NCBI RefSeq assembly: GCF_900111885.1
Contig: NZ_FOKG01000011.1
Location: 125,650-189,649 of the forward strand
Length of the DNA stretch: 64,000 nt
Source: Amycolatopsis marina
Lineage (GTDB): Bacteria; Actinomycetota; Actinomycetes; Mycobacteriales; Pseudonocardiaceae
Direction: 5' to 3'
Shown: piece after piece, positions 30,509-59,804 of the stretch
How positions within the stretch are numbered: the first letter of the stretch is position 1
Layout: every line of letters begins with the position of its first letter
Made by a program: the position numbers and the translations under genes
The notes under the pieces: model-generated
Seen by the model: only the letters and a program-made list of their open reading frames with translations
Told to the model about the DNA's origin: nothing
The model's database searches: none

Positions 30509-31456
30509 TCAGGTCATCGCGACCAGGATGCGGCGTTTGCCGGTGAACGGCTGACGACCGTGGGCCATGAGCATGTTGTTGATAACCATGATGTCACCCT
30601 GCTCCCAGGGAAAGGCATAACTGACGGCATCGTAGGTGTCCTTGACGTCCGCCAGATCGGCCTCCGGGATCGGGCTGCCGTCTGCGAAGTAGGCGTTGCG
30701 GGGCAGGTCCTCCTCCGGATAGAGCTCCAGCAGCGCCTCGCTGACCTCCGCGCCCAGGCTGGACACGTGAAACAGGTTGACCTGGTTGAACCACACCGTC
30801 TCCCCGGTATGCGGATCGTCCACAAAGGAAGGACGGAGGTGGCGTGTGCGCAGGCCCTCATCGGTCCATTCCAAGGTCTGGCCGTTACGGGCGCAGTAGT
30901 CCTCGACGACCGCAGGATCCTCGGTCTGGAAGGCCTCCTGCCAGGTCAGGCCGAGCCCCTCCCGAAATGCCCTGGTGTACGTGACTCCCGCGGCGAACCG
31001 CGCACGCAGCTCCGCGGGCAGTAGGCGGAACATCACTCTGCTGTCGGCGATCGGCGTGGCTCCGCCGGTCTCGGCCGCGGTGTCGCAGAGGAAGAACAAT
31101 CTTTCCGGCCAGGTTGCCGAGTACGAGTTCTCGTTGTGCATCGGGATCGACTCCGCGGGCGGATACTCCGTCGAGGTGTAGATGTTGCCCGCCACCGCGG
31201 ACCGCGGCGTCGAGCGTTCGGTGTAGGTCAGCAGCTCTCCCCCGACCTCCTCGATGACCTGGTTGAACAGGTCCAGATCGACCGGCAGCCCGCGCAGCAG
31301 GATCGCACCGTGCGTGCGCAGGCGCGCCTGTAGCCCGGCCAGGTTGGCCCGAACCCAGTCGAGGCCGGTGGCCTCGTAGACCGCGATCCTGGTGTGGCTG
31401 TTCCCCTCGATCCGGCACAGCGGCTCGGCGGGGTTGTTCACGATGTCGGCGGTCAT
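30509..31456 (-). CDS. SyrP/TauD-type Fe(II)/2-oxoglutarate dioxygenase
   Basis: A 315-aa TauD/TfdA-superfamily enzyme closest in layout to SyrP, the NRPS-tailoring aspartyl beta-hydroxylase. The metal triad is His and Glu in PMHNENSYSATWPERLFF (HxE rather than HxD, as in SyrP-like proteins) plus the distal His in NNMLMAHGRQPFTGKRRILV, whose Arg residues can bind 2-oxoglutarate. It probably hydroxylates an amino acid while tethered to a PCP; the cluster has Asn-like and Ser A domains. ATG has GGAGGA upstream and overlaps the previous stop (ATGA), so it is co-translated with the ATP-grasp genes. It is the last gene of the operon. Confidence 0.82.
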   Translation of the reverse strand: MTADIVNNPAEPLCRIEGNSHTRIAVYEATGLDWVRANLAGLQARLRTHGAILLRGLPVDLDLFNQVIEEVGGELLTYTERSTPRSAVAGNIYTSTEYPPAESIPMHNENSYSATWPERLFFLCDTAAETGGATPIADSRVMFRLLPAELRARFAAGVTYTRAFREGLGLTWQEAFQTEDPAVVEDYCARNGQTLEWTDEGLRTRHLRPSFVDDPHTGETVWFNQVNLFHVSSLGAEVSEALLELYPEEDLPRNAYFADGSPIPEADLADVKDTYDAVSYAFPWEQGDIMVINNMLMAHGRQPFTGKRRILVAMT

Positions 31457-32760
31457 GGGAGTTCCTCCAGTTCGAACCTGATCAGTCTCGATGCGTCCGC
31501 GTACAGCGCGGCGAGTTCCTCGTGGTCGCCGAACCCGGCGACGAACACGTTCACCGCGTAGACCTCCTGCTCGTCGCTGAGCCACTGTCCCGGCGTGACG
31601 GTGGTGACCACGCTGATGACCTCGGGCAGCTCCTCGAGCTCGTCGAGCCCGTGGACACGCACGAGCCTGCCGGTGCCGGACGGGTAGAGGATCAACTCGC
31701 CGAGCGGGACGGGGATGGTCGCGCCGTCCCGCTGCGGCGGCGGGGTTCCCAGTGCGAGCGACACCATCTCGGCGAACATGTCCACGCCCGTGCGCAGCCG
31801 CAGCAGTTCAGCGGTGGCACCGCCCACCGGTCGGCCCCCGTTCACCTCGACGATCGTCGGACCGGTCAGCTCGTCGTCGATCACCTCGACGTGGGCGCAC
31901 GTGTTGTCCAGCCCGAGCGCACGGACAGCGTCGACCGCGGCGGAGGTGATGAGCTTCGCGCGTTCGTCGGTCAGTTCCAAGGGCGGGCAGCACATACCGA
32001 GCTCGAACTTGCGTTCGTCGATCAACGGTTTGCCCACGAGCTCCACCGGTTCCGCCGTGCCGTCACGTACGAGCACGTCGATGGCATACTCCTGCCCGCG
32101 TAGCAGACCTTCCACCAGGAACACGGTGGTCGGGTCGATCGATCTCGTGCCAGGGCGCCCTTCGACCGGGCGGTGGTAACGGGCATCGGGGGAAGCCGGT
32201 AGCCGCTCGGCCAGCAACCGGTACGCCTCGACCAGTTCCCCGACCGTGTGCACGGTCCGCACCAGATTGCTCGCGGCGCCGTTCACCGGCTTGACGATCG
32301 CGGGCAGGCCCACCTCCGCCGCGACCGCACCGGCCTGGGCCGCATCCCCGATCGCCGCGAACCGTGGTCCCGGGAGTCCGGCACCGGCCAGCATCTCGCG
32401 CACCGCGAACTTGTTGTGTGCCAGCACGAAGACATCGGCGGGGCAGCGTGCGGTCCCCAGCAGTTCACCGACCCGGGCGGTGGCGGCGATGACTCCCTCG
32501 GCCGCGGTCAGGACGCCGGCAGGTGCCACACCGCCGGTGTGGTCGAGGATGGTCTTGGCCACGGCATCGGCGTCGCGCACGTCCTGGACCACCCAGACGT
32601 CCTCCGCCAGACCGGCCAGTTCGACTCGTTCTTCAGCTGTCACGGGTGGAGAGATCAGCACGACGCCCAGCCCGGCCGAGCGCAGCGCATCGGTTACCTG
32701 CCGAATCCAGTGCCCGTGGGTTTCCCTGACGACGCACGCGGTGCGTTCCCACCCGGTCAT
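31453..32760 (-). CDS. ATP-grasp ligase 2 of tandem pair
   Basis: A 435-aa ATP-grasp ligase of the carboxylate-amine type (relatives include BacD-like L-amino-acid ligases and carnosine-synthase-like proteins). N-terminal Rossmann-like domain about 1-110; HNKFAVREMLAGAGLPGP helix; VGLPAIVKPVNGAASNLVRTV nucleotide-binding strand (Lys); YAIDVLVRDG and HVEVIDDELTGPTIVEVNGGRPVGG supply metal-binding Glu and Asn. Such enzymes activate a carboxylate as acyl phosphate and join it to an amine. Its paralogue is directly upstream with a 4-base overlap; a 126-base stretch is almost identical between them. It may add an amino acid to the assembly-line product or build a dipeptide precursor. Confidence 0.85.
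   Translation of the reverse strand: MTGWERTACVVRETHGHWIRQVTDALRSAGLGVVLISPPVTAEERVELAGLAEDVWVVQDVRDADAVAKTILDHTGGVAPAGVLTAAEGVIAATARVGELLGTARCPADVFVLAHNKFAVREMLAGAGLPGPRFAAIGDAAQAGAVAAEVGLPAIVKPVNGAASNLVRTVHTVGELVEAYRLLAERLPASPDARYHRPVEGRPGTRSIDPTTVFLVEGLLRGQEYAIDVLVRDGTAEPVELVGKPLIDERKFELGMCCPPLELTDERAKLITSAAVDAVRALGLDNTCAHVEVIDDELTGPTIVEVNGGRPVGGATAELLRLRTGVDMFAEMVSLALGTPPPQRDGATIPVPLGELILYPSGTGRLVRVHGLDELEELPEVISVVTTVTPGQWLSDEQEVYAVNVFVAGFGDHEELAALYADASRLIRFELEELP
32201..32326. repeat. Near-identical 126-bp segment, copy in ATP-grasp 2
   Basis: Matches 33505-33630 at 125 of 126 positions by eye (a single G/C difference), in the same codon register, while flanking parts of the two paralogues differ much more. 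It encodes the KPVNGA...LVEAYRLLAERLP region. Suggests recent gene conversion. Confidence 0.85.
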
Positions 32761-34064
32761 ATCCCGTCCCGCATCTCGAATCGGATCAGTTTCGCCGCCT
32801 CCGCATGGAGCGCGGCCAGGTCGTCGTGGTCGGTGAACCCGGCGACGACCAGGTTCACCCCGTAGGTCTCCTGCTCGTCGCTGAGCACCTCGCCGGGAGA
32901 GACAGTGGTGATCACGTTGATGACCTCCGGCAGCGCGGCCACCTCGTCAAGACCATGGATCGCGGCGAGCCGCCCACCGCACGGTGGGTAGAGGATCAGC
33001 ATTCCGAGCGGGATGGGAAGTTTCGCGTTCTCGCGCGGCGGCGCCGGGATCCCCAGCGCCAACGTGACGCTCTCGGCGATCACGTCTATTCCGGTCCGGA
33101 GCTTGGCCAGCAGCGGCATGATCGAACCGGCGGGCCTGCCCGCGTTCACCTCCACGATGGTCGGCCCGGACACCTCGTCATCGATCACCTCGACGTGCGC
33201 GCACGTGTTGTCCAGCCCGAGCGCTCGGACCGCCGCACTCGCCGCCGCGACGACCAGGCCGGCCCGTTCCTCCGAGAGCCCGGCAGGCGGGCACGACAGC
33301 GCGAGTTCGAACTTGTGCTCGTCGATCAGCGGTTTGTCCAGGATCTCGACCGGCTCCACCTCCCCGTCCCGGATCAACACGTCCACCGCGTACTCCGGCC
33401 CACGCAACAGGGCTTCGACCAGGAACACCTTCGCGGGGTCGATCGCGGGCGCACCGGGGCGGCCGAGCACCGGCCGGTGGTAGCGGTCGTCGAGGGACTC
33501 CGGCAGCCGCTCGGCCAGCAACCGGTACGCCTCGACCAGTTCCCCGACCGTGTGCACGGTCCGCACCAGATTGCTCCCGGCGCCGTTCACCGGCTTGACG
33601 ATCGCGGGCAGGCCCACCTCCGCCGCGACCACACCAGCCTCGGCAGGATCCGCGATCAGCGCGAACCCCGGGCAGGGCACGCCCGCCTCGGCAAGTACCT
33701 GCCGCACGGCGAACTTGTTGCCCGCCAGCACGAAGGCGTCCGCGGGGCAGTGCGCGACGCCCAGCAGTTCGGCAACGCGCGCGGTGCAGGCGATAGCTCC
33801 GTCCGATCCGGTCAGCACCCCGGCAGGCGTGGCGCCGCCGGTGATCCCGCGAATCATCGTGCACAGCGCGGCCGCGTCATGGACGTCCTCGACCGCCACC
33901 ACGTCGTCCACGACCTCGGCCATCGCGGCCCACTCGGCCGCGTCCATCGGCGGGGCGAGGAGCACCGCGCGCAGGCCGGCCGCGTGCACGGCTGCCGCGG
34001 CCTCGCCGACCCAGTGTCCGCGCGACTCGCGGATCAGCAATGCGGTCTTCGACCAGTCGGTCAT
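32757..34064 (-). CDS. ATP-grasp ligase 1 of tandem pair
   Basis: A 435-aa paralogue of the next gene, equal in length and collinear throughout. ATP-grasp landmarks are LAGNKFAVRQVLAEAGVPCPGF, PAIVKPVNGAGSNLVRTV, KVFLVEALLRGPEYAVDVLIRDGEVEP and CAHVEVIDDEVSGPTIVEVNAGRPAGS. Differences cluster in the N-terminal third and around LLAKLRTGIDVIAE, the likely substrate-selecting parts, so the two ligases may use different substrates. ATG overlaps the NRPS stop (ATGA). Two ligases after the assembly line suggest two successive amide bonds made outside the NRPS, or a heteromeric ligase. Confidence 0.85.
   Translation of the reverse strand: MTDWSKTALLIRESRGHWVGEAAAAVHAAGLRAVLLAPPMDAAEWAAMAEVVDDVVAVEDVHDAAALCTMIRGITGGATPAGVLTGSDGAIACTARVAELLGVAHCPADAFVLAGNKFAVRQVLAEAGVPCPGFALIADPAEAGVVAAEVGLPAIVKPVNGAGSNLVRTVHTVGELVEAYRLLAERLPESLDDRYHRPVLGRPGAPAIDPAKVFLVEALLRGPEYAVDVLIRDGEVEPVEILDKPLIDEHKFELALSCPPAGLSEERAGLVVAAASAAVRALGLDNTCAHVEVIDDEVSGPTIVEVNAGRPAGSIMPLLAKLRTGIDVIAESVTLALGIPAPPRENAKLPIPLGMLILYPPCGGRLAAIHGLDEVAALPEVINVITTVSPGEVLSDEQETYGVNLVVAGFTDHDDLAALHAEAAKLIRFEMRDGI
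33505..33630. repeat. Near-identical 126-bp segment, copy in ATP-grasp 1
   Basis: Partner of 32201-32326; see that entry. The repeats are direct and 1304 bases apart, equal to one gene length, so recombination between them would fuse the two ligases in frame. Confidence 0.85.
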
Positions 34065-37000
34065 ACCCTCACCCGCCCCGCCGACACGTTTTCTTTCTGC
34101 GGCTGGGTTCCCGCCGTCGTAGCCGCGAGTTTGCGCTCGCGCTCCTGCGCGCCGACCAGGTCGTCGGGCAGCGAGTCCGGCACCTCGGTGTCGAACCGGC
34201 GCAGCAGGCGCAGGCAGAACCCGCCGAGGTTGACCGAAACCAGGAGCAGGGCGAACACGACGAACGCGAACCCGATGCCACGCCCGGTACCGGTGCCGAT
34301 CAGCTCGCCGACGGATCCCGCCAGCGTGCCCCCCGGCTGGAGCAGCGGTTCGAACCAGTGCACGGCGAGCGGGGCCAGCACCGCGAACCCGATGGGCAGT
34401 GTGGACCAGGTGATCGTCTGGTTGAACGCGAACACCCGGCCGTGGAACCGCTGCGGAACCTTGACCTGCACCAGGGTGGCGTAGATGCCCTGGGACACCG
34501 ACATCGCCATGGCCAGCAGGAACACCCCGATGGCCGCAACGGTCACCGAAGGATGCAGACCCATGATGAAACAGCCGGTCGCGATACCCACGTTGCCGAG
34601 CAGTACGCCGATCATCCTCCGGTGTCGTGGACCACCCCACAGCGCCATTCCCACACCGCCTGCGACCGCACCGATCGCCTCCGCCAGCGCGACACGAGCC
34701 ACGTCGGTCACCGAACCGAACGACAGCACCAGCGGGGTCACCAGGACCAGCGCGGGCGCCAGGAACACGTTGGCCAGCGCGAAGTACATCAGCATGGTGC
34801 GGAAGCCCCGGTGATTCCAGGAGTACCGCAGTCCGTTGGTGATCGCGGTCAGCAGTGGCTCACGCGGTCGCCAGCCCAGCAGGTCGGGGAAACGCACCAG
34901 CAGCAGGCCGACGATGGCGAAGACGTAGCTGGCCATGTCCAGGATCAGGATGCCCTTCAGCTCGATGGCTGCCAGCAGCCCTGCCGCGATCACCGGCATC
35001 AGCAACATGGCGAAGCCGTTGCTGAGCTGAGCGAGTCCCATCGCGTGCCCGAGGTACTGCTTTGGCACGAGCTGCGCGATCGACGACTGGTAGGCGATGC
35101 GTTGGAACGAACCGGCCACCGACCCGAGCGGGATCAGCAGGTAGATGTACCACAGGTGGAGATAACCGCTGGTCAGCAAGACAGCCAGCACGAGCTGGAT
35201 GCTGCCTGCCACCGCACTGGCCGCGATCATGATCCGCCTGCGGTCGCCGCGATCGACCAGCGCGCCCGCCAGCGGCAGGATGAGTACCCCGCAGAGCAGC
35301 GCCAGCGCCCACAACAGACCGAGGTCGGTCACCGAACCGGTCTTGGTGTAGAGCCAGATCGGTACCGCGAACGAGGTCAGCGCCGACCCGGTCGAGGACA
35401 CCAGCTGTCCGATGGTGATGGTGACGAACCGGCCCATACTCGGACGCACGGTCGGCTTGTCGTCCACTGTGGTCCGATGGGTGTCGTGCAGTGCCCACGC
35501 CGCGTCCGCGCCACGGGAGGCGATGTGCAGTTCGCCGGACTCGCCGGTCGCACCCTCCCGCACTGCCGGGTGGACCGCGGTGACGATCTCGGCCAGCTCG
35601 TCCGCCCGGTACCGCAGGAAGAAGTGGCCCGCCTGGTCGAGGACCACCAGCGCCGTGGTGTCGGTGAGGAACTCCCACTCCCGGTAACGTTCGGCGTAGT
35701 AGTCCGTGACGGGGTCCTCCGACCCGACGACCGACACGATCGGCGCGCGCAGCTTGTCCACCCGGCGATCGAGCAGCTGGCTGAAGTACTCCTCGGCCGC
35801 TCGGCCGTCGGCGCGCATGTTGCTGATGATCCGGTCGGCCTGCTCCGGGTCCAGGTCGTCGGTGTCCACCCCCATCCCCTTGAGCCAGTTCGAGTAGAAC
35901 TGGTTGCTGCGCAGCCTCTCGAGCCGGGTGCGTAGCGTGCCGACCATGCCCTTGAGGCGGGCGAACGGGAAGATCGCTCCGATGTAGACGACCTCGAGTT
36001 CCCGGCCCTGTTCCTCGAGCCTGCGCGCCACACCGACCGCGAGGGCGTTGCCCACCCCGCAGTGGCCGTAGATCGCCAGTGGCCCCTCGATCCGTTCGAG
36101 GATCTCCCCCGCCAGCCGCTCGACCAGTTCGTCGAACGGCACTGCCTCCTCGGAGAGGCCGACGTCATGGCCCGGTATGGCGACGGAGTACAGCGAGTTC
36201 CCTTTTGGCAGCGCGTCGGCCAGTGGCTGGTACACGATCGCGCTGCCACCTCCGTACGGGAAGCAGACGTAGGTGCGGGTCCGCTCGTCGGGCGGGACCG
36301 GCCTGGTCAGCTCGTAGAGCAGCCGCCGGGGTCCGTCGTCGGCGTCGCCACCCATGAAGGTCGCGAGTTCGCGGATCGTGCGGTTCTGGAACAGGTCCAT
36401 CACCCCGACCTGCCGCGAGCCCGCCGGACACTCCTTGCCGATTCTCGCCACCACCTGGGTCGCCAGCATCGAGTGGCCACCGAGGTCGAAGAAGTCGTCG
36501 TCGACCCCCAACTCGTCGACCTTGAGCACATCCGCCCAGATGGCCGCGAGCATGGTCTCGGCCGGAGTCGCCGGGGCCACCAGCTCCTGGTTCGAGTCCC
36601 GCCCGGACACGGGAGCGGGCAGCGCCTTGCGGTCGAGCTTTCCGTTGGGCGTCAGCGGAAGTTCGTCCAGGACGACGAACGAGGGCGGCACCATGTAGTC
36701 GGGCAGGGTCTGCTTGAGCGCCGTCCGCAGTGCAGCGGGGTCCGCCTCGCCCGCCAGGTAGCCGACCAACCGCTTGTCGCCCGGTGTGTCCTCCCGCACG
36801 ATCACCGTCGCGTCCCGCACCCCCGGCTGCTCGCGCAGCGCGGACTCGATCTCACCGAGCTCGATCCGCAGTCCACGCAGTTTGACCTGATGATCGAGCC
36901 GGCCGAGGAAGTCGATCGTGCCGTCCGGCCGCCAGCGTGCGAGATCCCCGGTCCGATACATCTTCGCGCCGCCCCCGCCGAACGGGTCCGGCACGAACTT

Positions 37001-39583: not shown

Positions 39584-42500
39584 GTGCGCTCCACTTCCGC
39601 ACCGGACTCCTCGGCCAGCAACCGCTGAACCTCGTCGTCGCTGAGCTGGTCGAGGTCCTCGGTCAGCCTGCGCTCGATCTCCGCGGCGAGTCCGGCCACC
39701 GTGGTGAACGAGAACAGCCCGCGAACCGGGAGGTCGACCTCGATCTGTTTCCGGATGCGCGCCATCGCCCTGATCGCGAGCAGTGAGTTGCCGCCGAGGG
39801 CGAAGAAGTCGTCGTGGACACCGATCTTCTCCACGTCGAGCAGCTCGGCGAACATCTCGGCCACCAGTTCCTCGGCCGCGGTCCGCGGTGCGAGATACCG
39901 AGCGTCGCCGCCGAGGTGCGGCGCGGGCAGTGCCGCCCGGTCGAGTTTGCCGCTGGGCGCGACCGGCAGTGTGTCCAGGATGACGAACGTCGAGGGCACG
40001 AGATACTCCGGCAGCACCTGCCGCAGCGCGTCGCGGACGCCGTCGGAGGCACCGACCAGATACCCCACAAGTGCGTCCCCGCGGACGGCGACGGCGGCCG
40101 AGCGCACGCCGGGCAGCTCCCGCATCGCCGCCTCGATCTCCCTTGGCTCGATCCGGTAACCGCGCAGCTTCACCTGATCGTCGGACCGGCCGAGATAGTC
40201 CAGTGTGCCGTCGCGCCGCCAGCGGACGAGATCACCGGTCGCGTACATCCTGGCCGGCTCGTCGCCGTCCACAGCTACGCCGAACCGGCAGTCCGGGAAT
40301 CGTTCCGCGGTGAGGTCCGGCCTGCCGAGATATCCCCGCGCCACCTGCGGCCCGGCGACGTACAGCTGTCCGGTCACCCCCGGCGGCACCGGCCGCAGCC
40401 GATCGTCGAGCACATACGCACGCGTGTTGGCGATCGGCCTGCCGATGCTCACCGGCCCTGCGGGCAACTCCGTTCCGGGCTCGAACCTCGCCGCGACACA
40501 GCCGACGGTCGCCTCCGTGGGGCCGTACTCGTTGGTGACCACCGTGTCCGGATGGCGTCGCCGAAGGGCGTGCACCGCCTCACCGGTCAGCGCCTCACCA
40601 CCCAGCACCAGGTCGCCGGAGGGGAACAACTCCCCGGTCAGCACGGCGAGATGGGTCGGCGTGGCCTTGACGAACGACGGCCTTCCCGCCGCCGCGTCCA
40701 CAATGGCCCCGCCGGAGGTCAGTGTGCCGAACAAGGTCGTGACCGTCAGATCGAAGGACGCGGACGTGTGCAGCAGCGCACGACCGGCGAGGCTCGGATA
40801 CGCCTGCCCTGCCCACGTCAGGTATGCGACGACCGAGTGGTGCTCGACCTGGACGCCCTTGGGCTTGCCGGTCGATCCGGACGTGTAGATCACATAGGCG
40901 ACGTCGTGCGGCCCCGCCGCCGACTCCGGGTCGGCGGCGGGCTGGTCCGCCCACTCCCCCGGCTCGTCGAGCGCGAGCAGCCGCACTTCTCCCGTGACCT
41001 GATCGGCCACACCGGCCAAGTCGGCCAAGTCGGCCATTGTGGACTGTGCGGTGGATCCGGCGGTGAGCACCACGGGAACGGCCGCGTCGGACACGATCAA
41101 CGCCTGCCGCCCCGCGGGGTGCTCCGGATCCAGCGGCACGTACGCGGCTCCGCTCTTGAGCACGCCCAGCAGACCGAGCACCAGCTCCGCGGAGTTCGGC
41201 GCACACACCCCGACCACGGTTTCCGGCCCTGCTCCCATGGCCCGCAGGCGGTGCGCGATCCGGTTGGCACCGGAGTTCAGTTCGGCGTAGCTGAGCCGCT
41301 GACCGCAGAGGTCGACCGCCGTCGCGTCCGGGGTCCGCCGCGTCTGTGCCTCGACCAGCCCGTGCACGGTGTCACCGGCCGGATACGGTGCGGTGGTCGC
41401 GTTCCATTCCTCGATCACCTGCGCACGTTCGGTATCGGACAGCAGCGGAAGTTCGGCCACCGGCAGTGCTGGGTCGGCCATCGCGGCCAGCAGCAGCCGG
41501 AAGTACCGGTCCACCATGGCTTCGGCGGTCGCCCGGTCGAAGAGGTCAGTGCGGTAGAGCAGGCGCCCGTTCCGAGCGGTGAGGTCGATGGCCACGTCAT
41601 CCTTCGCGGTGGCGTAGCGGACCGGTTCGATTCCCGAGTCCGGGATGAAGTTGAACCCGATCTGGTACAGCGGCTGAACGCCGGGATCGCGATCCCGCAC
41701 GACGGCCTGCGCGACCACCTGGAACGGCACCTGACCGTTCTCGATGGCGTCGAGCATCGCGGTCCGCACGCGGCCCACCAGTTCGGCGAACGTCGGGTCG
41801 CCCGAGCAGTCGACGCGGATGGCGAGCTGGTTGACGAACATGCCGATCAGCGGTGCCAGCTCGGGCAGGTCCCGCCCGGCCACCGGAACACCGATCACCA
41901 GATCGTCCGAACCGGACAGCCGGTACAGCAGCGCCGCATACCCGGCGAGCAGCACCATGAACGGGGTCGCGGACGACTCCCCGCCGACCTCGCCCGCCTT
42001 GCCGAGCAGGCCGTCCGGCAGCTCGAAGTCGACCTGGTCACCCGAGAAACCGAGGTCCACGGGGCGAGGCCGGTCGCTGGGCAGCGTGTGCACCGGTGGC
42101 GCCCCGGCGAGGTGCTTGCGCCAGTACTCCAGCTGACCGGCCAGCCCGGCACCCTCGACCTGCCCGCGCTGCCATGCCGAGTAGTCGGGATACTGGATCG
42201 CCAGTTCCGGCAACTCCGGCTCACGCCCCTCCATCGCGGCGTTGCACGCCTCGTCCAGCTCACGGGCGAGGATCAGCACCGAGGCCGCGTCGAACACCGT
42301 GTGGTGCACCACGAACGTCAGTACCCAGTCGGCATCGGCCAGGTGACACAGGTGCGCCCGCCAGGGCGGTGGCGCGTCCAGCCGAATCGGCCGCCGGGCG
42401 GCGGCGACGGCGAGTTCGACCGCCCGCTGCTCCCGCTCCGCCTCCGGCAGGCCACGCAGGTCGTGCACCTCCGGCTCGACCGGGACCTCGGCGTGCACCA

Positions 42501-42729: not shown

Positions 42730-42738
42730 GGTCTCCAA

Positions 42739-48201: not shown

Positions 48202-48205
48202 TTCG

Positions 48206-51200
48206 TCACTCCTGTTCCGCGGTGCCGGTTGTGCCGGCGGTGCGTCGTGGCCTTCTGGCCTGGGATCGTCCGCGCCGTGCGGCGACACGTTCGGCCGCGC
48301 GGGCGAGTTCGGGACTGCGCGTCGCGCCGTGCAGGTGGACGGCGAGCGCGCGGATGTTGGGATGGGTGAACAGTTCGACCATCGGGATCGGCCTGCCGAG
48401 TCGGGCGGTGACCTTCGCGTGCACCTCGGCGAGCGCGAGCGAGTGGCCGCCGACGTCGAAGAAGTTGTCGGTGACCCGGACGGACTCCAGCCCGAGCACC
48501 TCACGCCAGACGGCGGCGATCATCGACTCCGTCGCGGCCAGCGCGGACGGGTCGGATGTGCCTGCGTCCACGATCCCGGCCGGCACTGGCCCTTGCCGCC
48601 CCGGTATCAGCGCGGCCGGTCCCGACGAGCGGAGCGCGGGGCGGGGCAATTCACTCGCGGCGATCGGAACGTGGGGTGCGGCGGTCAGTTCCGCCACCAG
48701 CTTCAGGAAGTCCTCGGCCAGCGCGGCCATCCGGGACCGGTCGAACAGGTCCGGGTTGTAGAGCAGTTCGACGCCGTGCTCGAGCACGTACACGGTGAGG
48801 TCGAACGGTGATCCCGGCTTGTCCACCGGCAGCCATTCGGCGCGCACATCTCGCAGCAGCAGGCTCGGCTCGCTGAAGTTGAGCACGTTCAACATCACCT
48901 GCACCAGCGGGGCGCGAGAGGTGTCCCGCCCGACGCCGAGCGCGGTCACCAGACGTTCGATGGATGCCGCCGGATGGGCGGTCGCCGCCCGGAGTTCGGC
49001 ATCGCAGCGACGGACGTGCGTGCTGAAACTCGCTGCGTCGCCGGAGCACAGGCGCACCGGCACGATGTCCACGAAGAACCCGGCCACGTCCTGGAACGCG
49101 GCCAGCTGCCGGTCCGCGACCACCGTGGCGACCAGCTGCTCGGTTGTCCCGGTCAGCCGGTGCAGCAGCTGGCCGAATCCGGCGAGCAGCACCCCGGCTG
49201 TTGTGCTGCCCGTGGTCGCCGCGAGCTCACGGATCGCCTGCCCTGACCCGTCCGGGAACGGGTGGTACAGAGTGGCGCCGCGATAGGTCTGCACGGCGGG
49301 GCGGGCGCGGTCCCTGGGCAGATCAAGTGTGGTGGGAACGTCGCGAAGATGCTCCGTCCACCAGGCGACGTCGAGCCCGGCGCGTCGCTCGTCCCGGTCC
49401 GCACGCCAGACCGCATAGTCCGCATAGGACGCCACGGTGGGCTCCAGCGTGGCGCCGCTGTACGCTGCGGCGAGATCCGCGCAGAGCAGTGCCTGTGACC
49501 AGCCGTCGAACACCGCATGGTGCAGGGTGAGTCCGAGCACGTGCTCGGTGTCGCCGAGCCGGTACAGCCGCGCTCGCCACGGCGGTCCCTCGTCGAGCCG
49601 CAGCGGTGTCGCCGCGTCGGTGGCCAGCCGGGCGCGCACCTGCTCACCCGCGATCGGCAGCACCGGCAACGGAACGTCCTCGACCGGTCGGCACTCGGCC
49701 TGCGGGACGCCGTCCACCGAGCGGATCCGCCACCGCAGCACGTCGTGGCGGTCGGTCACCGCGCGCAGTGCCGCACGCAACGCGGCCTGGTCCAGCTGGC
49801 CGGACAGCCGGAAGGCCATCGCGATGTTGTACGGCGCGGCATCCGGAGCGAGCTGGTCGAGGAACCACAGCCGTCGCTGGGGCGGTGAGAGAGCCGGTGG
49901 GTTCCCCGTGGCCAGCTCCGGTCCGGCAAGAGGAGGAGCGTCCGCGACGCGCTGTGCGAGGGCGCGCAGGGTCCGACCGGCCAGCACGTCCTCCACGCCG
50001 ACGTCCGCCGTCAGTTCGGCGCGCAGGGCCGCCACCAGCCGCATGGCCGAGATGGAATCGCCCCCGGAGAGCAGGAAGTCGTTGCCCGCCATGGGCCCGA
50101 GCACCCGCCCCCAGATGCGCGTCACGGCATGTCGCACCGGGTTTGCCGAGGCGTCCGGCTCGGGGTGCGGGTCGTCGCCGGATTGTGAGGCGAGTGCGTG
50201 CTCCGACATGGAACGCAACGCGGGCCGGTCCACCTTTCCGGTAACCGGGTTGAGCGGCAGGGTGTTCAGCCGCACGACGGCGGCCGGCCGCATCGCGGGC
50301 GTCAGCCTGTCCTCGGTGTGGGCTCGGATATCCACATCAGACGGTGCGGTGGCGGGAGTGACGAACGCGACCAGCCGGGTCCCGTCGTGGTCGTTCACCG
50401 CCTCGACCGCCGCCGCGGTGACACCTGGGTGCTCGGACAGTGCGGCTTCCACCTCACCGAGTTCGATCCGCTGTCCACGGACCTTGACCTGCCGGTCGGC
50501 GCGGCCAACGAATTCGATCCTGCCGTCGAACCCGACGCGAACCAGGTCGCCGGTGCGGTAGAGACGCTGGTTCGCCCGGTCGGCGAACGGGTCCTCGACG
50601 AATCGGGACGCGGTCAGTTCCGGCCTGCCGAGATAGCCGCCCGCCACGCCCGGGCCGCCGATGAGCAGTTCGCCGGTCTCACCCCGGCCGACGAGGCGGA
50701 GTCGATCGTCGACGACATATGCCCGGTGGTTCGGAGTGGGGGTACCGATCGGCACCGGATCGGCCGGGATCCCGCTCACCTCGTGGGTCAGCACGACCAC
50801 GGTGGTCTCGGTCGGTCCGTAGACGTTGAGGAACCGTCGTCCCGGCAGCCACTTCGCGGCCAGTTCGGCGGGCACCTTCTCACCGCCGCAGGCGATGATC
50901 TGCCAGTCCGGCACGTCAGCCGGGTCGAGCAGGGCCAGCACGGTCGGGGTGATGAAGCCGCTGTTGACCTGGTGCTCGACGAGGAAGCGGCGCAGCCGCT
51001 CCGGGTCCGCCCGGTCGGCCGTGCCGAGCAGTTGCACCGAACCTCCGTGCGCCAGCGGCGCGAAAACATCCATCGTGAACGCGTCGAAAGCCGGCGAGGC
51101 GATCCCGAGGGTCCTGGTCCCGGGCCCGATCCCGAGCAGGTCCGCCCAGCCGGTGACGAACGCGACAATGTTCCGGTGGCTGGTGAGCACGCCCTTCGGT

Positions 51201-51739
51201 GTTCCTGTCGACCCCGAGGTGTACAGCACGTGTGCGGTGTTCGCGGGCACAGCCGGGCATACCGGAACCCCTGCCCGGTCCTCCGATGCCGCTGCGCGGA
51301 GAGGTGGTGTCTCGAGGTCCGCTATTCCCGGCGCCGCACCGAACTCGGCCACCGCGGCGTCGCCGACCACCAGGGTGACTCCGGCGTCGGCAGCGATCGC
51401 GGCGAGCCTGCTTGCGGGGCCGCCCGGCTCCAGCGGCACGTAGCAACCCCCGGAGAGCAGCACACCGAGCACTGTGGACACCAGAGCTGGAGACCGTTCG
51501 GCGCACACACCGACCCTGGTTTCCTGCCGCACGCCCCGCTCACGGAGAACGTCGGCCACGCTCCTCGCGTGGGCAACCAGCTCGCGGTAGCTGAGCTGGA
51601 CATCCCACTGCCGCACTGCCACGGCATCCGGAGTCCTCGCGGCCTGGGCCAGGATCAGCTCCGCGATACTGGTGTCCGGAAAGGACAGTTCTTGTCCCGC
51701 CAGCCATTGTGTGGCCGCGACGGGCATGGTGTTCGTCAT
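48206..51739 (-). CDS. NRPS A-PCP-C-PCP
   Basis: An 1177-aa protein. It opens with an A domain (about 20-480; YTSGSTGTPKG near 176) lacking an upstream C domain. The code reads D-A-M-F-A-G-V-V-V-K, which I cannot assign beyond a hydrophobic residue. PCP1 has LLSGGDSISAM near 556. C domain about 600-1030 with HHAVFDGWS near 740. PCP2 has VGGHSLALAE near 1095 and a basic tail. PCP2 has no cognate A domain, so it must be loaded in trans, for example by this A domain or by that of the first protein. ATG at 51739 follows GGGAG. It precedes the KS-AT-KR-DH-ACP protein by 4 bases. Confidence 0.9.
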   Translation of the reverse strand: MTNTMPVAATQWLAGQELSFPDTSIAELILAQAARTPDAVAVRQWDVQLSYRELVAHARSVADVLRERGVRQETRVGVCAERSPALVSTVLGVLLSGGCYVPLEPGGPASRLAAIAADAGVTLVVGDAAVAEFGAAPGIADLETPPLRAAASEDRAGVPVCPAVPANTAHVLYTSGSTGTPKGVLTSHRNIVAFVTGWADLLGIGPGTRTLGIASPAFDAFTMDVFAPLAHGGSVQLLGTADRADPERLRRFLVEHQVNSGFITPTVLALLDPADVPDWQIIACGGEKVPAELAAKWLPGRRFLNVYGPTETTVVVLTHEVSGIPADPVPIGTPTPNHRAYVVDDRLRLVGRGETGELLIGGPGVAGGYLGRPELTASRFVEDPFADRANQRLYRTGDLVRVGFDGRIEFVGRADRQVKVRGQRIELGEVEAALSEHPGVTAAAVEAVNDHDGTRLVAFVTPATAPSDVDIRAHTEDRLTPAMRPAAVVRLNTLPLNPVTGKVDRPALRSMSEHALASQSGDDPHPEPDASANPVRHAVTRIWGRVLGPMAGNDFLLSGGDSISAMRLVAALRAELTADVGVEDVLAGRTLRALAQRVADAPPLAGPELATGNPPALSPPQRRLWFLDQLAPDAAPYNIAMAFRLSGQLDQAALRAALRAVTDRHDVLRWRIRSVDGVPQAECRPVEDVPLPVLPIAGEQVRARLATDAATPLRLDEGPPWRARLYRLGDTEHVLGLTLHHAVFDGWSQALLCADLAAAYSGATLEPTVASYADYAVWRADRDERRAGLDVAWWTEHLRDVPTTLDLPRDRARPAVQTYRGATLYHPFPDGSGQAIRELAATTGSTTAGVLLAGFGQLLHRLTGTTEQLVATVVADRQLAAFQDVAGFFVDIVPVRLCSGDAASFSTHVRRCDAELRAATAHPAASIERLVTALGVGRDTSRAPLVQVMLNVLNFSEPSLLLRDVRAEWLPVDKPGSPFDLTVYVLEHGVELLYNPDLFDRSRMAALAEDFLKLVAELTAAPHVPIAASELPRPALRSSGPAALIPGRQGPVPAGIVDAGTSDPSALAATESMIAAVWREVLGLESVRVTDNFFDVGGHSLALAEVHAKVTARLGRPIPMVELFTHPNIRALAVHLHGATRSPELARAAERVAARRGRSQARRPRRTAGTTGTAEQE

Positions 51740-51774
51740 CCAGGCTCCCCATGATCGGATGGATGGTGGACCCG

Positions 51775-52530
51775 TTACGCGCCGGCACCGGCGGCCGCGG
51801 TAGCGGCAACCAGATCGCCGCGCACGGTGGCGAGCAGTTCGTCCCGGGATTCGCGCAGAAAGAAGTGCCCCCCTTCGATCTGCGAAAGGCTGAATCCGGC
51901 CGCGGTGTGCCCGGCCCACGCCTGGACGTCGGCGGTCGCGACCGCGTCGTCCGAACTACCGGCGAACGCGACGATCGGCACCTCGACGGGGGGTTCCGGG
52001 AGGTACTCGTAGTCGTCGATCCAGGTGAAATCGGCCCGTAGCACCGGTAGCAGCAGTTCCATCAGCTCGGGCTCGGCGAGCACGGCATCGGGCACGCCGC
52101 CGCCCTCGGCGACCCGGCGGACCAACTCCTCGTCGTCCAGCCGGGACAGCCCGACGAACGGCCCCTGCTCCCGGATGTGCGGCGCCCTGCAGGCGCCCGC
52201 ATACAGTCGCACCGGCAGCCGCTGCCGAGTCCGGCGCAGCCGCCTGATCACCTCGAACGCGACCAACCCACCCAGCGAGTGGCCGTACAGCGCGAACGGG
52301 CGGCCGTCCGCGTGGGCGGCGACCGCGTCCGCGAGTTCGGCGATCTCGAAACCGGGGTCCTCGGCGAACCTCCGTTCCCGTCCCGGCATCGAGACCGCCT
52401 GGACCTCGACGTCCGGTCCGATAGCCGATGGCCAGTCGTAAAACACGCTGGCCGCACCACCGGCGTAGGGCAGGCAGTACAGCCGGACCGCGGCCTCCGG
52501 ACTTGGCCTGCGGCAGAGGAACCAGCTCAT
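51775..52530 (-). CDS. Type II (editing) thioesterase
   Basis: A 251-aa external thioesterase of the RifR/GrsT type: LYCLPYAGGAASVFYDWP, the nucleophile motif FALYGHSLGGLVAFEVIRRL (Ser), catalytic Asp in AGSSDDAVAT and His in IEGGHFFLRESRDELL. Such enzymes clear misprimed or stalled carrier proteins. The ATG overlaps the previous stop (ATGA), so MSWFLCRRPS is the true start rather than a longer reading. In contrast to the TE inside the last NRPS, the nucleophile here is the normal Ser. Confidence 0.93.
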   Translation of the reverse strand: MSWFLCRRPSPEAAVRLYCLPYAGGAASVFYDWPSAIGPDVEVQAVSMPGRERRFAEDPGFEIAELADAVAAHADGRPFALYGHSLGGLVAFEVIRRLRRTRQRLPVRLYAGACRAPHIREQGPFVGLSRLDDEELVRRVAEGGGVPDAVLAEPELMELLLPVLRADFTWIDDYEYLPEPPVEVPIVAFAGSSDDAVATADVQAWAGHTAAGFSLSQIEGGHFFLRESRDELLATVRGDLVAATAAAGAGA

Positions 52531-55500
52531 CGCGGGCCGCCCTTCAACGGTGGGTCGATCCAGAACCTGGTGCGCTGAAACGGATATGTCGGCAGTGGAA
52601 TCCGGCGCCCTGACCGGCCTTCGTAGTGGGCACGCCAGTCGACATCGGCGCCCGCGACCCACCTCGCGCCCAGCTCCAGCAACTCGCCCTGCTGTCCGGC
52701 CAGGTCCGTGTCGTCGTCCAGCAGGACGTCCAGTGCGGTGACCGCGGCGTCCCGGCTCTCCGCCACCACCGCCGCGCGGCAGCGCAGGGCACGCCTGCCC
52801 ACCGCGAGCGTGTACGCGACGTCGGCGAGTTCCGGCGAACCCGCGACCAGATGGTCACGCAGCCGGGAGACGACGGCACGCAACGCCGTGCTGTCGCGTG
52901 CCGACATCGGCAGCAGGTACGGACCGATGGCGGGAACCGCTACCCCGCCGGGCGGGGCCTCGCGTACGACGACGTGCACGTTGGTGCCGCCCATCCCGAA
53001 CGCGCTGACCCCGGCGACCCTGGGTTCGCCAACGGGCCATTCGAGGGGTTTGGTCGGCACGTAGAACGGCCCGCCCGTGAGATCGACCTCGGGATGTGGT
53101 GTCGTGAAGTGCAGGTTCGGCGGAATCACCCCGTGCCGGACCGCGAGCACCGCCTTGATGAGCCCGGCCACGCCCGCGGCCGCGTCGAGGTGACCGATGT
53201 TGGTCTTCACCGAGCCGAGCGCGCACCACCCCTGCGGCGCGCTGTGCCCGAACACCCGGTTGAGCGCGGACACCTCGATCGCATCTCCGAGCGGGGTGCC
53301 ACTGCCGTGTGCCTCGACCAGCCGCACCTCGACGGGGTCCACCTGGGCCACGGCCAGCGCCTCGGCCACCGCGGCGGACTGCCCCGCCGTCCCAGGCACG
53401 GCATAGCCCGCCCGGTCCGCCCCGTCGTTGGTCATCGCCCAGCCGGGCAGCACCGCGTAGACGTGATCTCCGTCGGCGAGTGCGTCGGCGAGCCTGCGCA
53501 GCGCGACGACCCCGGCTCCCGAACTGAATCCGGAGCCGTCGGCCGCCGCATCGAAAGCCCGGCAGCGGCCGTCGACCGAGGTCAGGGCGCCACGGCGGTG
53601 CCGGGGCCAGGTGACGCTCACGCCGCCTGCCAGTGCGAGATCACAGCGGTAGTCGGCCAGGTTCTGCGCGGCGAGGCAGACCGCCGCAAGCGAACTGGAA
53701 CACGCGCTCTGCACGGCAAGGGCGGGACCGGTGAGGCCGAGCCGGTAGGCCACCTGACCCGGCAGATGGTCGGTGAGCTGACGCTCGAGCAGCCGAGTCT
53801 CCCACTCGTCGGGGTCGAGCACACCGGTCACCGCCGGGTTGTCGAACAGGTGGTAGAGGAAGTAGCGGTTCACCGAACTCGACGCGAAGACGCCCACCGG
53901 GCCCTCCTCCTCCGCAGGGTCCCGTCCCGCGTCCTCCAGTGCCTGCCAGGCCGCCTCCAGGAACAGCCGGTGCTGCGGGTCGGCGAGGGCCGCCTCTTCG
54001 GCGCTGAAGCCGAAGAACTCGGCGTCGAAGTCCTCGACTCCGTCGAGCCGGCCGCCAGAGCGCACATGTGCCGGATCGGAGCGCAGGCCCACCCCGATGC
54101 CGAGTTCGGCCAGTTCCTTGTCGGAGTAGTCGTGGATGGAGTCGACGCCGGCGCACAGGTTCCACCAGAACGACGCCACGTTCCGCGCGCCGGGAAAGCA
54201 CCCGCCCAGCCCGACGACGGCGATCAGGTCGCTGTTGACCTCGGCCGGTTCGACGGGTGGGACACGGTGGGCCGGTGCCTGCGCGACCTCGGCAGCGCTC
54301 GTTGCACTGTCCCCGACGGTGCCGGAAACAGCGCCGTCGAGGTACTCGGCCTGCGCGGTGATGGTCGGATGTTCGAACAGACGGAGCAGCGGAATGTCCA
54401 CTCCGAACCGTTCCGTCAGCCGCTGCTGCACACGGCCGAGCAGCAATGAGTGCCCGCCGACGTCGAAGAAATTGTCGGACACGGCCACGACGTCCCGGCC
54501 GAGCACCGCGCACCAGATGTCATGCACCTGCCGCTCGGTTCCGGTCGTCGGCGCGCCGAAGCCGGTTCCGGCCATTTCCGCCCTCGGGTCGGGCAGCGCC
54601 CGTTCGTCGAGCTTGCCGGTCACGGTGAGCGGGAACTCGCCGACCACGGTCACGGCAGCGGGCACCGAGTAGCCGGGCAGCCGTCGGGCCAGTTCCGCCC
54701 GCAGCAGCGTCGGTTGTGGGTGGTGAGTGTCCGCCGCGGCCGTGACGTATCCCAGTAGGACGTCGTCACGCACGATGACCCGCGCCTGTGCCACTCCGGG
54801 CAGCGCGCTGAGGCAGGCCTCGACCTCGGCGGGCTCCACCCGGAACCCGCGGAGCTTCACCTGCCGGTCCAGCCTGCCGAGGCAGACCAGTTCGCCGTCC
54901 GGCAGGCGCCGCCCGACGTCCCCGGTGCGGTAGCGACGTACGCCGTCGGCGGTGACGCCGAACCCCGGGCTCTGTCCGTCGGGCCGGTCGGACTGGTCGA
55001 GATAGCCCTGTACCAGGTGGCGGCCGCGGATCTCGATCTCACCGCTGTCCTCGCGCAGCGCCAGCTCGAATCCGGGCAGCGCGGAACCGATCGGCAGTGG
55101 CCCCCTCGAGGCCGCCGCATCGAACTCGGTCACGGGCAGCCGGTACTGCGCCGCGAACGTCACCTCGGTCGCGCCGTACCCGTTGACGAACACACACTCC
55201 GGCCCGAACCGCGCCACGCCTGCCCGGACGTCGTCGTAGGTGGCTTGTTCACCGCCGAGCAGCACGGTCCGCACCGAGGCGAGCCGGTCCTCGCCGAGCA
55301 CGTCGAGCAGGTACCGGTACACCGTCGGAGTCGAGTGGTAGATCGTCACCCCATGCCGTGCCAGTACTCGCGCGGTATGGGCGACCCCGTGCGCACGGAC
55401 ATCCACCGGAACCACTGCGGCACCGGTCAACAGTGCCGGATAGAGGTCGGGAATCGCCGCGTCGAAGGCGAACGACGCCAGCAGGCTGAGCCGGTCGGCG

Positions 55501-56057
55501 ACGGTGATCGACAGGCTGTCGATCTGGTTGTCCACCACGTGCAGCAGGTTGCGCCGAGTCTGCCCGACGGCCTTGGGCCGTCCCGTCGAGCCCGAGGTGA
55601 ACAGGACGTACGCCAGTTCGTCCAGGTCCTGCCCCGACGCCGACGGGAGCGCCGCGAGGTGGTGGTCGTCCGCCAGCACCAGCCGCCTCGCGGTGTGGCG
55701 GCAGAGGGCTTCGGCCAGTTCGGCGTGTTCCGGAGCTGCCAGCACCAGTGACACGTTCGCCGTCGCGAGCTGGTATTGGAGCCGGTCGACCGGAAAACCC
55801 GGATCGAGCGGGACGTACACACACCCGGCCGCGAGTGTGCCCAGTACGGCGGCGATCGACGCGGTGCCGTGCCCGGTCAACAGTCCTACCCTGGTGCCCG
55901 GCAGCGCGCCGGCCGTGCGTAACAGGCGGGCCCGTCCCCCGGCGAGTTCCGCCAGCCGGGCATAGGTGACGTCGCCGGTGTCGGTCGCGACGGCGATCCG
56001 GTGGGGTGCGTACTCGGCGGTGTCGGTGAAACGTCGGACGATGTCGGATCTGCTCAT
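52527..56057 (-). CDS. A-PCP-KS starter protein with missing AT
   Basis: An 1176-aa hybrid. A domain about 5-480 (FTSGSTGRPKAVG near 154) with unusual YGATEVTFA instead of YGPTE; the code reads D-A-P-H-L-G-G-F-A-K, which I cannot assign. PCP has VGGHSLLLGR near 534. KS about 615-1035 (SACSSSL Cys near 784, VEAHGSGT, KTNIGHLDAAAG). After the KS come the KS-AT linker (LLPMSARDSTALRAVVSRL) and then the post-AT linker (RIPLPTYPFQRTRFWID), with the whole AT and any ACP absent. The KS therefore needs an AT and carrier in trans. The ATG overlaps the stop of a 23-codon leader ORF, so translation is probably coupled to it. Confidence 0.9.
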   Translation of the reverse strand: MSRSDIVRRFTDTAEYAPHRIAVATDTGDVTYARLAELAGGRARLLRTAGALPGTRVGLLTGHGTASIAAVLGTLAAGCVYVPLDPGFPVDRLQYQLATANVSLVLAAPEHAELAEALCRHTARRLVLADDHHLAALPSASGQDLDELAYVLFTSGSTGRPKAVGQTRRNLLHVVDNQIDSLSITVADRLSLLASFAFDAAIPDLYPALLTGAAVVPVDVRAHGVAHTARVLARHGVTIYHSTPTVYRYLLDVLGEDRLASVRTVLLGGEQATYDDVRAGVARFGPECVFVNGYGATEVTFAAQYRLPVTEFDAAASRGPLPIGSALPGFELALREDSGEIEIRGRHLVQGYLDQSDRPDGQSPGFGVTADGVRRYRTGDVGRRLPDGELVCLGRLDRQVKLRGFRVEPAEVEACLSALPGVAQARVIVRDDVLLGYVTAAADTHHPQPTLLRAELARRLPGYSVPAAVTVVGEFPLTVTGKLDERALPDPRAEMAGTGFGAPTTGTERQVHDIWCAVLGRDVVAVSDNFFDVGGHSLLLGRVQQRLTERFGVDIPLLRLFEHPTITAQAEYLDGAVSGTVGDSATSAAEVAQAPAHRVPPVEPAEVNSDLIAVVGLGGCFPGARNVASFWWNLCAGVDSIHDYSDKELAELGIGVGLRSDPAHVRSGGRLDGVEDFDAEFFGFSAEEAALADPQHRLFLEAAWQALEDAGRDPAEEEGPVGVFASSSVNRYFLYHLFDNPAVTGVLDPDEWETRLLERQLTDHLPGQVAYRLGLTGPALAVQSACSSSLAAVCLAAQNLADYRCDLALAGGVSVTWPRHRRGALTSVDGRCRAFDAAADGSGFSSGAGVVALRRLADALADGDHVYAVLPGWAMTNDGADRAGYAVPGTAGQSAAVAEALAVAQVDPVEVRLVEAHGSGTPLGDAIEVSALNRVFGHSAPQGWCALGSVKTNIGHLDAAAGVAGLIKAVLAVRHGVIPPNLHFTTPHPEVDLTGGPFYVPTKPLEWPVGEPRVAGVSAFGMGGTNVHVVVREAPPGGVAVPAIGPYLLPMSARDSTALRAVVSRLRDHLVAGSPELADVAYTLAVGRRALRCRAAVVAESRDAAVTALDVLLDDDTDLAGQQGELLELGARWVAGADVDWRAHYEGRSGRRIPLPTYPFQRTRFWIDPPLKGGPR

Positions 56058-56125
56058 GGCCGGTTGGCTGCGCGATCCGGCCGATTCCGGGCGCGCGACA
56101 ACCAGGGTGGTGCGGTGGACTTCAT
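56054..56125 (-). CDS. 23-aa leader ORF coupled to first NRPS gene
   Basis: ATG at 56125 has a good GGGGAG Shine-Dalgarno 5 bases upstream and reads MKSTAPPWLSRARNR, then PDRAANRP, ending in TGA that overlaps the ATG of the A-PCP-KS gene (ATGA). The NRPS gene itself has no Shine-Dalgarno, so ribosomes probably arrive through this ORF. Rich in Arg and Pro; it may simply couple translation or act as an attenuation sensor. No family is recognised. Confidence 0.5.
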   Translation of the reverse strand: MKSTAPPWLSRARNRPDRAANRP

Positions 56126-59757: not shown

Positions 59758-59804
59758 GAGTGCCCTGCGGAGCTGATCCGCGGACGACTGGACGAGGGGG
59801 CGCT

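What the first reader, a model, noticed from the sequence alone, without database searches (positions are those of the whole stretch)
30509..56125. Apparently undescribed hybrid NRPS-PKS operon with tandem ATP-grasp ligases
Seen: a 25.6-kb single-strand operon, mostly 4-base overlaps, encoding A-PCP-KS, TEII, A-PCP-C-PCP, KS-AT-KR-DH-ACP, C-A-PCP, C-A-PCP-TE-MFS, two ATP-grasp ligases and a SyrP-like dioxygenase. Known: ATP-grasp ligases and SyrP enzymes each tailor peptide natural products. Inference: I cannot match the whole set to a pathway I know; it would make a short peptide-polyketide with Asn and Ser residues and extra ligase-made amide bonds.
Basis: partly seen in the sequence, partly recalled or inferred. 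Interest (0 to 1): 0.85.

Follow-up and report, generated by a model that had tools for sequence, protein, structure and literature searches.

The report
Widespread Amycolatopsis peptide-polyketide gene cluster
A nine-gene bacterial factory for an unknown peptide-polyketide is real and shared by many Amycolatopsis species, and its release enzyme has the active-site layout known from enzymes that close strained four-membered rings, which makes a reactive beta-lactone product a testable guess.

Summary
Nine co-directional genes (window 30509-56057, minus strand) encode A-PCP-KS, TEII, A-PCP-C-PCP, KS-AT-KR-DH-ACP, C-A-PCP, C-A-PCP-TE-MFS, two L-amino-acid-ligase-type ATP-grasp enzymes and a TauD dioxygenase. 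It is not a one-off: the tandem ligases occur in 35 of 80 genomes of the genus (Amycolatopsis). The 27 relatives examined keep the core in the same order; one lacks TauD and one ends at its contig end. Tested catalytic residues and Asn/Ser specificity codes are conserved. Ten searches of open-licence papers found no described product; MIBiG was not available.

ObiF (beta-lactone) and SulM (beta-lactam) have this layout; ObiF1 is the best solved-structure match. With a Ser-loading last module, I propose a serine beta-lactone released straight into a fused exporter (about 0.4). Ligase, TauD, TEII and front half recur in a cousin cluster without that thioesterase, so the cluster looks like two joined halves. 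Product, first steps and ligase substrates remain unknown.

The parts
52527..56057 (-). gA: A-PCP-KS (1176 aa); KS ends in a post-AT linker with no AT domain; A-domain code DAPHLGGFA (substrate unknown)
   Evidence: Pfam; code 21 of 21; KS Cys/His/His and PCP Ser 28 of 28
51775..52530 (-). gB: stand-alone type II thioesterase (251 aa), Ser nucleophile; found in the operon only in the window and G331 among 28 clusters
   Evidence: Pfam; motif
48206..51739 (-). gC: A-PCP-C-PCP; A code DAMFAG[V/A]V[V/A], probably a small or branched aliphatic residue (inferred)
   Evidence: Pfam; start codon reasoning; code; residues 28 of 28
42739..48201 (-). gD: KS-AT-KR-DH-ACP, AT motif HAFH (malonyl, recalled), KR and DH residues intact
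   Evidence: Pfam; residues 28 of 28
39580..42729 (-). gE: C-A-PCP, A code for Asn
   Evidence: Pfam; code 24 of 24 rows
34061..39583 (-). gF: C-A(Ser)-PCP-TE-MFS single protein (1840 aa)
   Evidence: Pfam; code 24 of 24 rows; long matches
35579..36268 (-). TE domain within gF: Cys1175 nucleophile, Ala1203 at the canonical Asp position I, Asp1290 at position II, His1320
   Evidence: 31 of 31 sequences (Ala1203 in 30, Gly in 1); best PDB match ObiF1; control
34409..35416 (-). MFS exporter domain fused behind the TE in gF
   Evidence: Pfam (residues 1390-1725)
32757..34064 (-). gG: ATP-grasp / L-amino acid ligase type (435 aa)
   Evidence: Pfam; PDB; Foldseek 3vot rank 1; E292/E305/N307/R310 28 of 28
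31453..32760 (-). gH: second ATP-grasp / L-amino acid ligase type (435 aa), 64-65% identical to gG
   Evidence: Pfam; same residues 28 of 28
30509..31456 (-). gI: TauD/clavaminate-synthase-like Fe(II)/2OG dioxygenase (315 aa)
   Evidence: Pfam; PDB; HxE...H and Arg 26 of 26; absent from the G331 stretch read

Best explanation
This is a compact hybrid NRPS-PKS cluster. Shown by sequence: two amino-acid-loading front modules (gA, gC), one extension module with ketoreductase and dehydratase (gD), then modules read as Asn (gE) and Ser (gF), a Cys-type thioesterase and a fused exporter. Inferred order: residue 1 is loaded by gA. The AT-less KS of gA extends it with malonate held on the second PCP of gC, the malonyl group being supplied by the gD AT in trans. 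The gC C domain then caps its amine with residue 2. gD adds an enoyl C2 unit, then Asn and Ser follow. The thioesterase takes the chain on Cys1175, and the terminal Ser hydroxyl closes a serine beta-lactone, which the fused MFS exports at once, protecting the cell. TauD probably beta-hydroxylates carrier-bound Asn (not needed in the lineage without it). The two ligases probably work on the amino end or on a front-end building block.
For: Domains. Conserved codes and catalytic residues. TE: Cys, no Asp at position I, Asp at position II in 31 of 31; ObiF1 best PDB hit E 3.7e-30 against 1.8e-18 for the next; ObiF1 rank 1 and SulM TE at ranks 3, 6 and 7 in Foldseek, from a low-confidence model. 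PMC11298585 (passages): among the NRPS TE structures compared there only ObiF1 and SulTE place the Asp at position II, and both use Cys and close four-membered rings. PMC6668435 (passages): ObiF Cys required for beta-lactone. Control: of 70 fetched TE loci (66 distinct places), only L121 and L168 share the layout. Two-halves logic: the 80 kb read around G120 holds the front end, TEII, a ligase, TauD and an Asp-like next module but no such TE; the Embleya and S. clavuligerus loci read hold the Cys-TE-MFS module without ligase or TauD matches.
Against: Only two characterised TEs define the layout, and type II TEs such as RifR and RedJ share Asp position II. TE identity to ObiF1 is about 30% (29%). 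The S. clavuligerus relative has the same TE behind an Asp-like code, which offers no free beta-hydroxyl unless modified. The Ser could be used otherwise. The trans use of the gD AT and of the gC second PCP is inference. The substrate of gA (DAPHLGGFA) is unknown. No flanking gene family is shared by all relatives, so no target-based self-resistance gene was recognised. If the TE makes a lactone, the ligases cannot extend the C-terminus, so their role is unexplained. The TE model has mean pLDDT 55.
Confidence: 0.42

Rival explanations
1. The thioesterase hydrolyses the chain to a linear acid and the two ATP-grasp ligases then activate that carboxylate and add one or two amino acids, as the first reader's 'extra ligase-made amide bonds' suggests.
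For: Two ligases with intact residues follow gF directly with 4-nt overlaps; such ligases work on free carboxylates (family knowledge; fold matches 3vot, BacD, RizA).
Against: The TE has the Cys/position-II layout of ring-closing TEs, and Cys TEs are described as suggestive of challenging transformations (PMC11536411, passage). In G120 a ligase goes with the front half, not with this TE; at the Embleya and S. clavuligerus loci this TE occurs without a ligase match.
Confidence: 0.25
2. The Cys thioesterase closes a larger macrolactone or macrolactam rather than a four-membered ring.
For: BulbE-TE has a Cys nucleophile and makes a 15-atom macrolactam (PMC11536411, passages).
Against: BulbE keeps Asp at the beta6 position, unlike ObiF, SulM and this TE; the predicted chain is short.
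Confidence: 0.2
3. The KS of gA does no elongation and only relays the first aminoacyl unit, so the product has one ketide unit instead of two and the second PCP of gC is loaded by an A domain in trans.
For: No AT or ACP follows the gA KS; the cousin G120 also has an AT-less stand-alone KS.
Against: The KS keeps Cys/His/His in 28 of 28. In G120 another AT-less KS carries its own carrier domain, as an elongating module would.
Confidence: 0.3
4. An already described natural product whose cluster is not in the open-licence library.
For: 35 of 80 genus genomes carry the tandem ligases, so the compound may have been isolated; MIBiG was not searchable; most subscription papers are missing from the library.
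Against: Ten searches found no matching cluster.
Confidence: 0.15

Closest known systems
ObiF (obafluorin NRPS) thioesterase, PDB 6n8e
   Same: Cys nucleophile, no Asp at position I (Gly there in ObiF, Ala here), Asp at position II, in-cis TE behind a module for a beta-hydroxy amino acid
   Different: Here the TE is fused to an MFS, the last residue is predicted Ser and the chain contains a polyketide part; activity untested
SulM (sulfazecin NRPS) thioesterase, PDB 8w2c
   Same: Cys nucleophile and Asp position II
   Different: The Gln-Cys-Asn motif reported as present only in SulTE is absent (here His-Cys-Gly), and the last residue is predicted Ser, not diaminopropionate
L-amino acid ligases BL00235 (3vot), BacD/YwfE, RizA
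   Same: ATP-grasp_4 plus LAL_C2 domains, tested catalytic residues, overall fold
   Different: 15-23% identity in the structural match; tandem pair inside an NRPS-PKS operon; substrates unknown
Cys-TE-MFS terminal modules of Embleya sp. NBC_00896 and NBC_00888 and S. clavuligerus megaplasmids
   Same: C-A-PCP-TE-MFS along nearly the whole gF length, 54-55% (Embleya) and 44% (S. clavuligerus); same TE layout
   Different: No ligase or TauD match in the about 45-kb loci read; no KS match in the two Embleya loci
   Same: A-PCP with code DMTHLGGFA, TEII, AT-less KS, A-PCP-C-PCP, KS-AT-KR-DH-ACP, Asp-like next module, one ligase, TauD; matching domains 43-67% identical
   Different: Genes on both strands, extra modules with a methyltransferase domain, one ligase, no close Cys-TE or MFS match in the 80 kb read

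Membership tests
ObiF/SulM-type strained-ring thioesterase | Cys nucleophile | tested here: met
   31 of 31
ObiF/SulM-type strained-ring thioesterase | catalytic Asp absent at position I and present at position II | tested here: met
   residue 1203 Ala in 30 and Gly in 1, residue 1290 Asp in 31 of 31; layout described in PMC11298585 and PMC6668435 passages
ObiF/SulM-type strained-ring thioesterase | last residue carries a beta nucleophile | tested here: met
   Ser code DVWHVSLID, 24 of 24 rows, (prediction from a recalled code)
ObiF/SulM-type strained-ring thioesterase | forms a four-membered ring | not testable with these tools
   needs enzyme assay
[quoted passage not shown]
   His-Cys-Gly here; criterion from PMC11298585 passage
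L-amino acid ligase (ATP-grasp) | ATP-grasp and LAL_C2 domains with catalytic Glu/Glu/Asn/Arg | tested here: met
   (residue roles recalled)
L-amino acid ligase (ATP-grasp) | joins two unprotected amino acids | not testable with these tools
   needs enzyme assay
SyrP-type aspartyl/asparaginyl beta-hydroxylase | TauD family with 2-His-1-carboxylate triad | tested here: met
   PF02668; H107, E109, H299 in 26 of 26
SyrP-type aspartyl/asparaginyl beta-hydroxylase | closer to SyrP than to other TauD enzymes | not tested
   no SyrP sequence was compared; nearest PDB entries are At3g21360 (1y0z) and 9yut
Hybrid cis-AT NRPS-PKS | each extending KS has its own AT | tested here: not met
   gD has an AT; the gA KS has none

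The most novel reading that the evidence does not exclude
A genus-wide, undescribed class of peptide-polyketides ending in a serine beta-lactone, made by an ObiF-type Cys thioesterase fused in one chain to its exporter, so that a reactive warhead is formed and expelled by the same protein. The warhead half has been swapped between pathways independently of the ligase/TauD front half.
Probability: 0.38. Interest if true: 0.8.

Novelty: new variant of a known kind. Interest (0 to 1): 0.6.

Why it matters
Few TEs are known to close four-membered rings (ObiF and SulM are the two described in the passages I saw). A conserved family, found in 35 of 80 genomes of the Amycolatopsis genus by its tandem ligases, with that active-site layout, a Ser-type last module and a fused exporter, gives a ready test of whether the layout predicts beta-lactone formation. 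It would also supply many homologues, several named producers and a clear mass and reactivity target for isolation.

Tried and rejected
Amicoumacin/zwittermicin-type Asn prodrug motif: recalled, dropped because Asn comes late and gE shows no E domain. Detoxin/rimosamide (also tauD-bearing, PMC9231227 passages): dropped, as the passages seen mention no ligase and the codes here read Asn and Ser. Pachycephalamide and demiguisin clusters of Amycolatopsis (PMC11446937, passages): different gene sets as described there. Pbo cluster of P. syringae (PMC8473136, passages and abstract/outline): holds a ligase-fold and an oxygenase gene but different NRPS/PKS genes. Dipyrimicin (search listing only): not pursued. 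Mycosporine-type clusters with ATP-grasp and TauD (PMC11888242, passages): unrelated. Nocardia beta-lactones (PMC7413640, passages): beta-lactone-synthetase type, unrelated. Self-resistance gene in the flanks: no flank family reaches all 27 relatives; the largest, of untested function, is in 16. Phylum sample for TE-MFS: 3 of 396 genomes matched (own included), the two others only over the MFS part. Class sample for the ligase: 1 of 394, own genome only. Structure of the TE: mean pLDDT 55, used only as weak support. Own genome: one MbtH gene and a third LAL_C2 gene, both on other contigs.

Corrections made on checking: the gG and gH rows were chosen by best score, which can pick the other paralogue; one search repeats the residue check on both ligase genes of each genome, with the same result. 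In one search I labelled Gly1202 as the canonical Asp position; the alignments put it at residue 1203 (Ala in 30, Gly in 1). Neither changes the odds.

Of the 36 relatives with the tandem pair (34 in the genus, plus G227 and G331), 27 were fetched and 9 were not. In the TE control, 70 loci of the matches were read; four pairs are the same place twice, and one is the window's own gB. The six in-family TEs were left out on purpose, and the other listed matches were not read.
Full report
Check of the observation. Nine minus-strand genes fill 30509-56057. Pfam gives gA AMP-binding, PP-binding and KS; gB thioesterase; gC AMP-binding, PP-binding, Condensation, PP-binding; gD KS, AT, KR, DH, PP-binding; gE and gF Condensation, AMP-binding, PP-binding, gF also Thioesterase and MFS_1; gG and gH ATP-grasp_4 and LAL_C2; gI TauD. 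Junctions were measured. The gC start assumed there was a GTA codon, so the ATG at 51739 is more likely, leaving 5 of 8 junctions as 4-nt overlaps. ARAGORN found no tRNA and Rfam no match at its gathering scores in the window. The neighbours are an SDR, an ABC1/UbiB-type gene and a SARP on one side, and a TetR and a lipase-like gene on the other. They are not part of the conserved unit, except that G049 carries a SARP of the same kind (34% identical) upstream of its cluster.

Where it comes from and how common it is. Searching with gG found the tandem pair in 35 of 80 genomes of the genus (own genome included), a match in 38 of 390 genomes of the family (one of these, G120, with a single copy) and in 1 of 394 in an even sample of the class (own only). 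One of the named loci is Amycolatopsis eburnea (the contig of G017), one Amycolatopsis sp. A133 (G065), and one Labedaea rhizosphaerae (G227) (contig lengths). In 20 of 20 genus relatives fetched first, gA and gC to gI are colinear. Seven more relatives gave the same, except that G331 lacks TauD and the G054 contig ends shortly after gH, whose frame ends early (one search shows no replacement oxygenase in the G331 stretch read). TEII lies in the operon only in the window and in G331 (72% identical) among the 28 clusters, and a homologue (49%) sits next to the A-PCP gene in G120, so it looks ancestral and often lost (inference).

Conservation. Specificity codes read from alignments: gA DAPHLGGFA 21 of 21; gC DAMFAGVVV 10, DAMFAGAVV 10, DAMFAGAVA 1; gE DLTKVGEVG 24 of 24; gF DVWHVSLID 24 of 24 (the 24 rows are 23 genomes). 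Asn and Ser assignments, and the malonyl meaning of the AT motif HAFH, are from recalled tables. The tested catalytic residues of KS, AT, KR, DH, C, PCP (28 of 28), of both ligases (28 of 28) and of TauD (26 of 26) are invariant. One caveat: the gE condensation motif ends in Ala instead of Gly in 28 of 28. The KR lacks an LDD motif, which would fit an A-type KR (recalled).

The thioesterase. The gF TE reads GHCGVG. Phmmer against solved structures puts ObiF1 first (E 3.7e-30), then a type II TE (1.8e-18), with the SulM TE at 1.1e-11. In 31 of 31 sequences (window, 27 relatives, three Streptomycetaceae) residue 1175 is Cys, 1290 Asp and 1320 His. Residue 1203, which aligns with the canonical Asp, is Ala in 30 and Gly in 1. 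PMC11298585 (passages seen) states that among NRPS TE structures only ObiF1 and SulTE place the catalytic Asp at position II, that both use Cys and that both close four-membered rings; type II TEs such as RifR and RedJ share that Asp position. PMC6668435 (passages) shows the ObiF Cys/His/Asp triad and Gly at the usual Asp place. PMC11536411 (passages) describes BulbE, a Cys TE with Asp at the usual place that makes a macrocycle.

Control for the thioesterase. I read 70 TE loci from the genomes (four pairs are the same place; one is the window's gB). Cys occurs in L121, L153, L164 and L168, and Cys together with no Asp at position I and Asp at position II only in L121 and L168. Of the 40 loci fetched from long open frames (L133-L172) that is 1 of 40, and 33 of 40 have Asp at position I. 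The automatic nucleophile column was off by one gap, so I read the printed motifs. The AlphaFold model of the TE is poor (pLDDT 55). Its Foldseek list has ObiF1 first and SulM at ranks 3, 6 and 7, with type II TEs between them, which I count as weak.

Two halves. Splitting the proteins into domains and searching cousin loci: the 80 kb read around G120 holds relatives of the gA A domain (44%), TEII (49%), the gA KS (55%), all of gC (52-56%), all of gD (52-67%), a ligase (47%) and TauD (48%), but its best matches to the gF TE and MFS are only 24-25%. The Embleya and S. clavuligerus loci hold the gF module (TE 55-58%, MFS 48-53%) but no ligase or TauD match. In G120 the code of the gA-like domain is DMTHLGGFA, and the module after the PKS reads DFTKLGHVG, Asp-like. 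So ligase, TauD, front modules and an Asx residue travel together, while the Cys-TE-MFS end is a separate unit. That argues that the ligases do not depend on the carboxyl end made by this TE, and keeps hydroxylation of carrier-bound Asn/Asp as the best guess for TauD.

Ligases. Both keep Glu292, Glu305, Asn307 and Arg310. The gG model (pLDDT 84) matches L-amino acid ligases 3vot, 3wnz, 3wo1 and RizA in the first five ranks of the PDB list. Their substrates cannot be read from sequence.

Mechanism, shown and inferred. Shown: gene set, conservation, domain order, residue layout. Inferred: identities of Asn and Ser; malonate as the only extender; extension by the AT-less KS on the second PCP of gC; capping by residue 2; beta-lactone closure on Ser; export by the fused MFS; action of TauD and the ligases. 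The weakest links are the first residue, the KS step and the ligases.

Literature. Ten searches of an open-licence library found no description of this cluster; their listings were seen, and passages of nine papers were read (PMC5984834, PMC11446937, PMC11888242, PMC9231227, PMC8473136, PMC11298585, PMC6668435, PMC11536411, PMC7413640). Most subscription papers and MIBiG were out of reach. Adamek 2018 (PMC5984834; passages only) mentions PKS/NRPS BGC-4, spread over Amycolatopsis clades A and B and A. marina at variable positions; it may be this family, but I could not check.

Verdict.

Noticed in passing
L080 20001-25451, L082 20001-26941 and L081 20001-25661: Embleya and S. clavuligerus megaplasmids carry C-A-PCP-TE-MFS proteins, without listed genes in PLSDB, with the same Cys-TE layout; the code is Ser in Embleya and Asp-like in S. 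clavuligerus.
   Followed up: partly
L168 (G024 C45, 412732-414557): A thioesterase in a long open frame outside this family also has a Cys nucleophile and Asp at position II.
   Followed up: no
L121 (G000 C11, 45251-45916): The window's own genome has another thioesterase with a Cys in the GHCMG motif and Asp at position II, in a 576-codon frame.
   Followed up: no
L087, L088, L101 (G120 contig 16): Cousin cluster on both strands with an AT-less KS-ACP protein, a methyltransferase-bearing NRPS and a single ligase next to an A-PCP gene.
   Followed up: partly
window 59760-62816 and 20270-23575: Two large SARP/AfsR-type regulators lie on either side of the cluster; among the relatives read only G049 showed a similar one beside its cluster.
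   Followed up: no
G000 C10 199909-200265 (about 10 kb beyond the window): A thioesterase in a 2714-codon open frame suggests a second large NRPS or PKS gene close by.
   Followed up: no
L083-L084 (G331): A 5.4-Mb genome of another genus in the family keeps the cluster with TEII but without TauD.
   Followed up: yes
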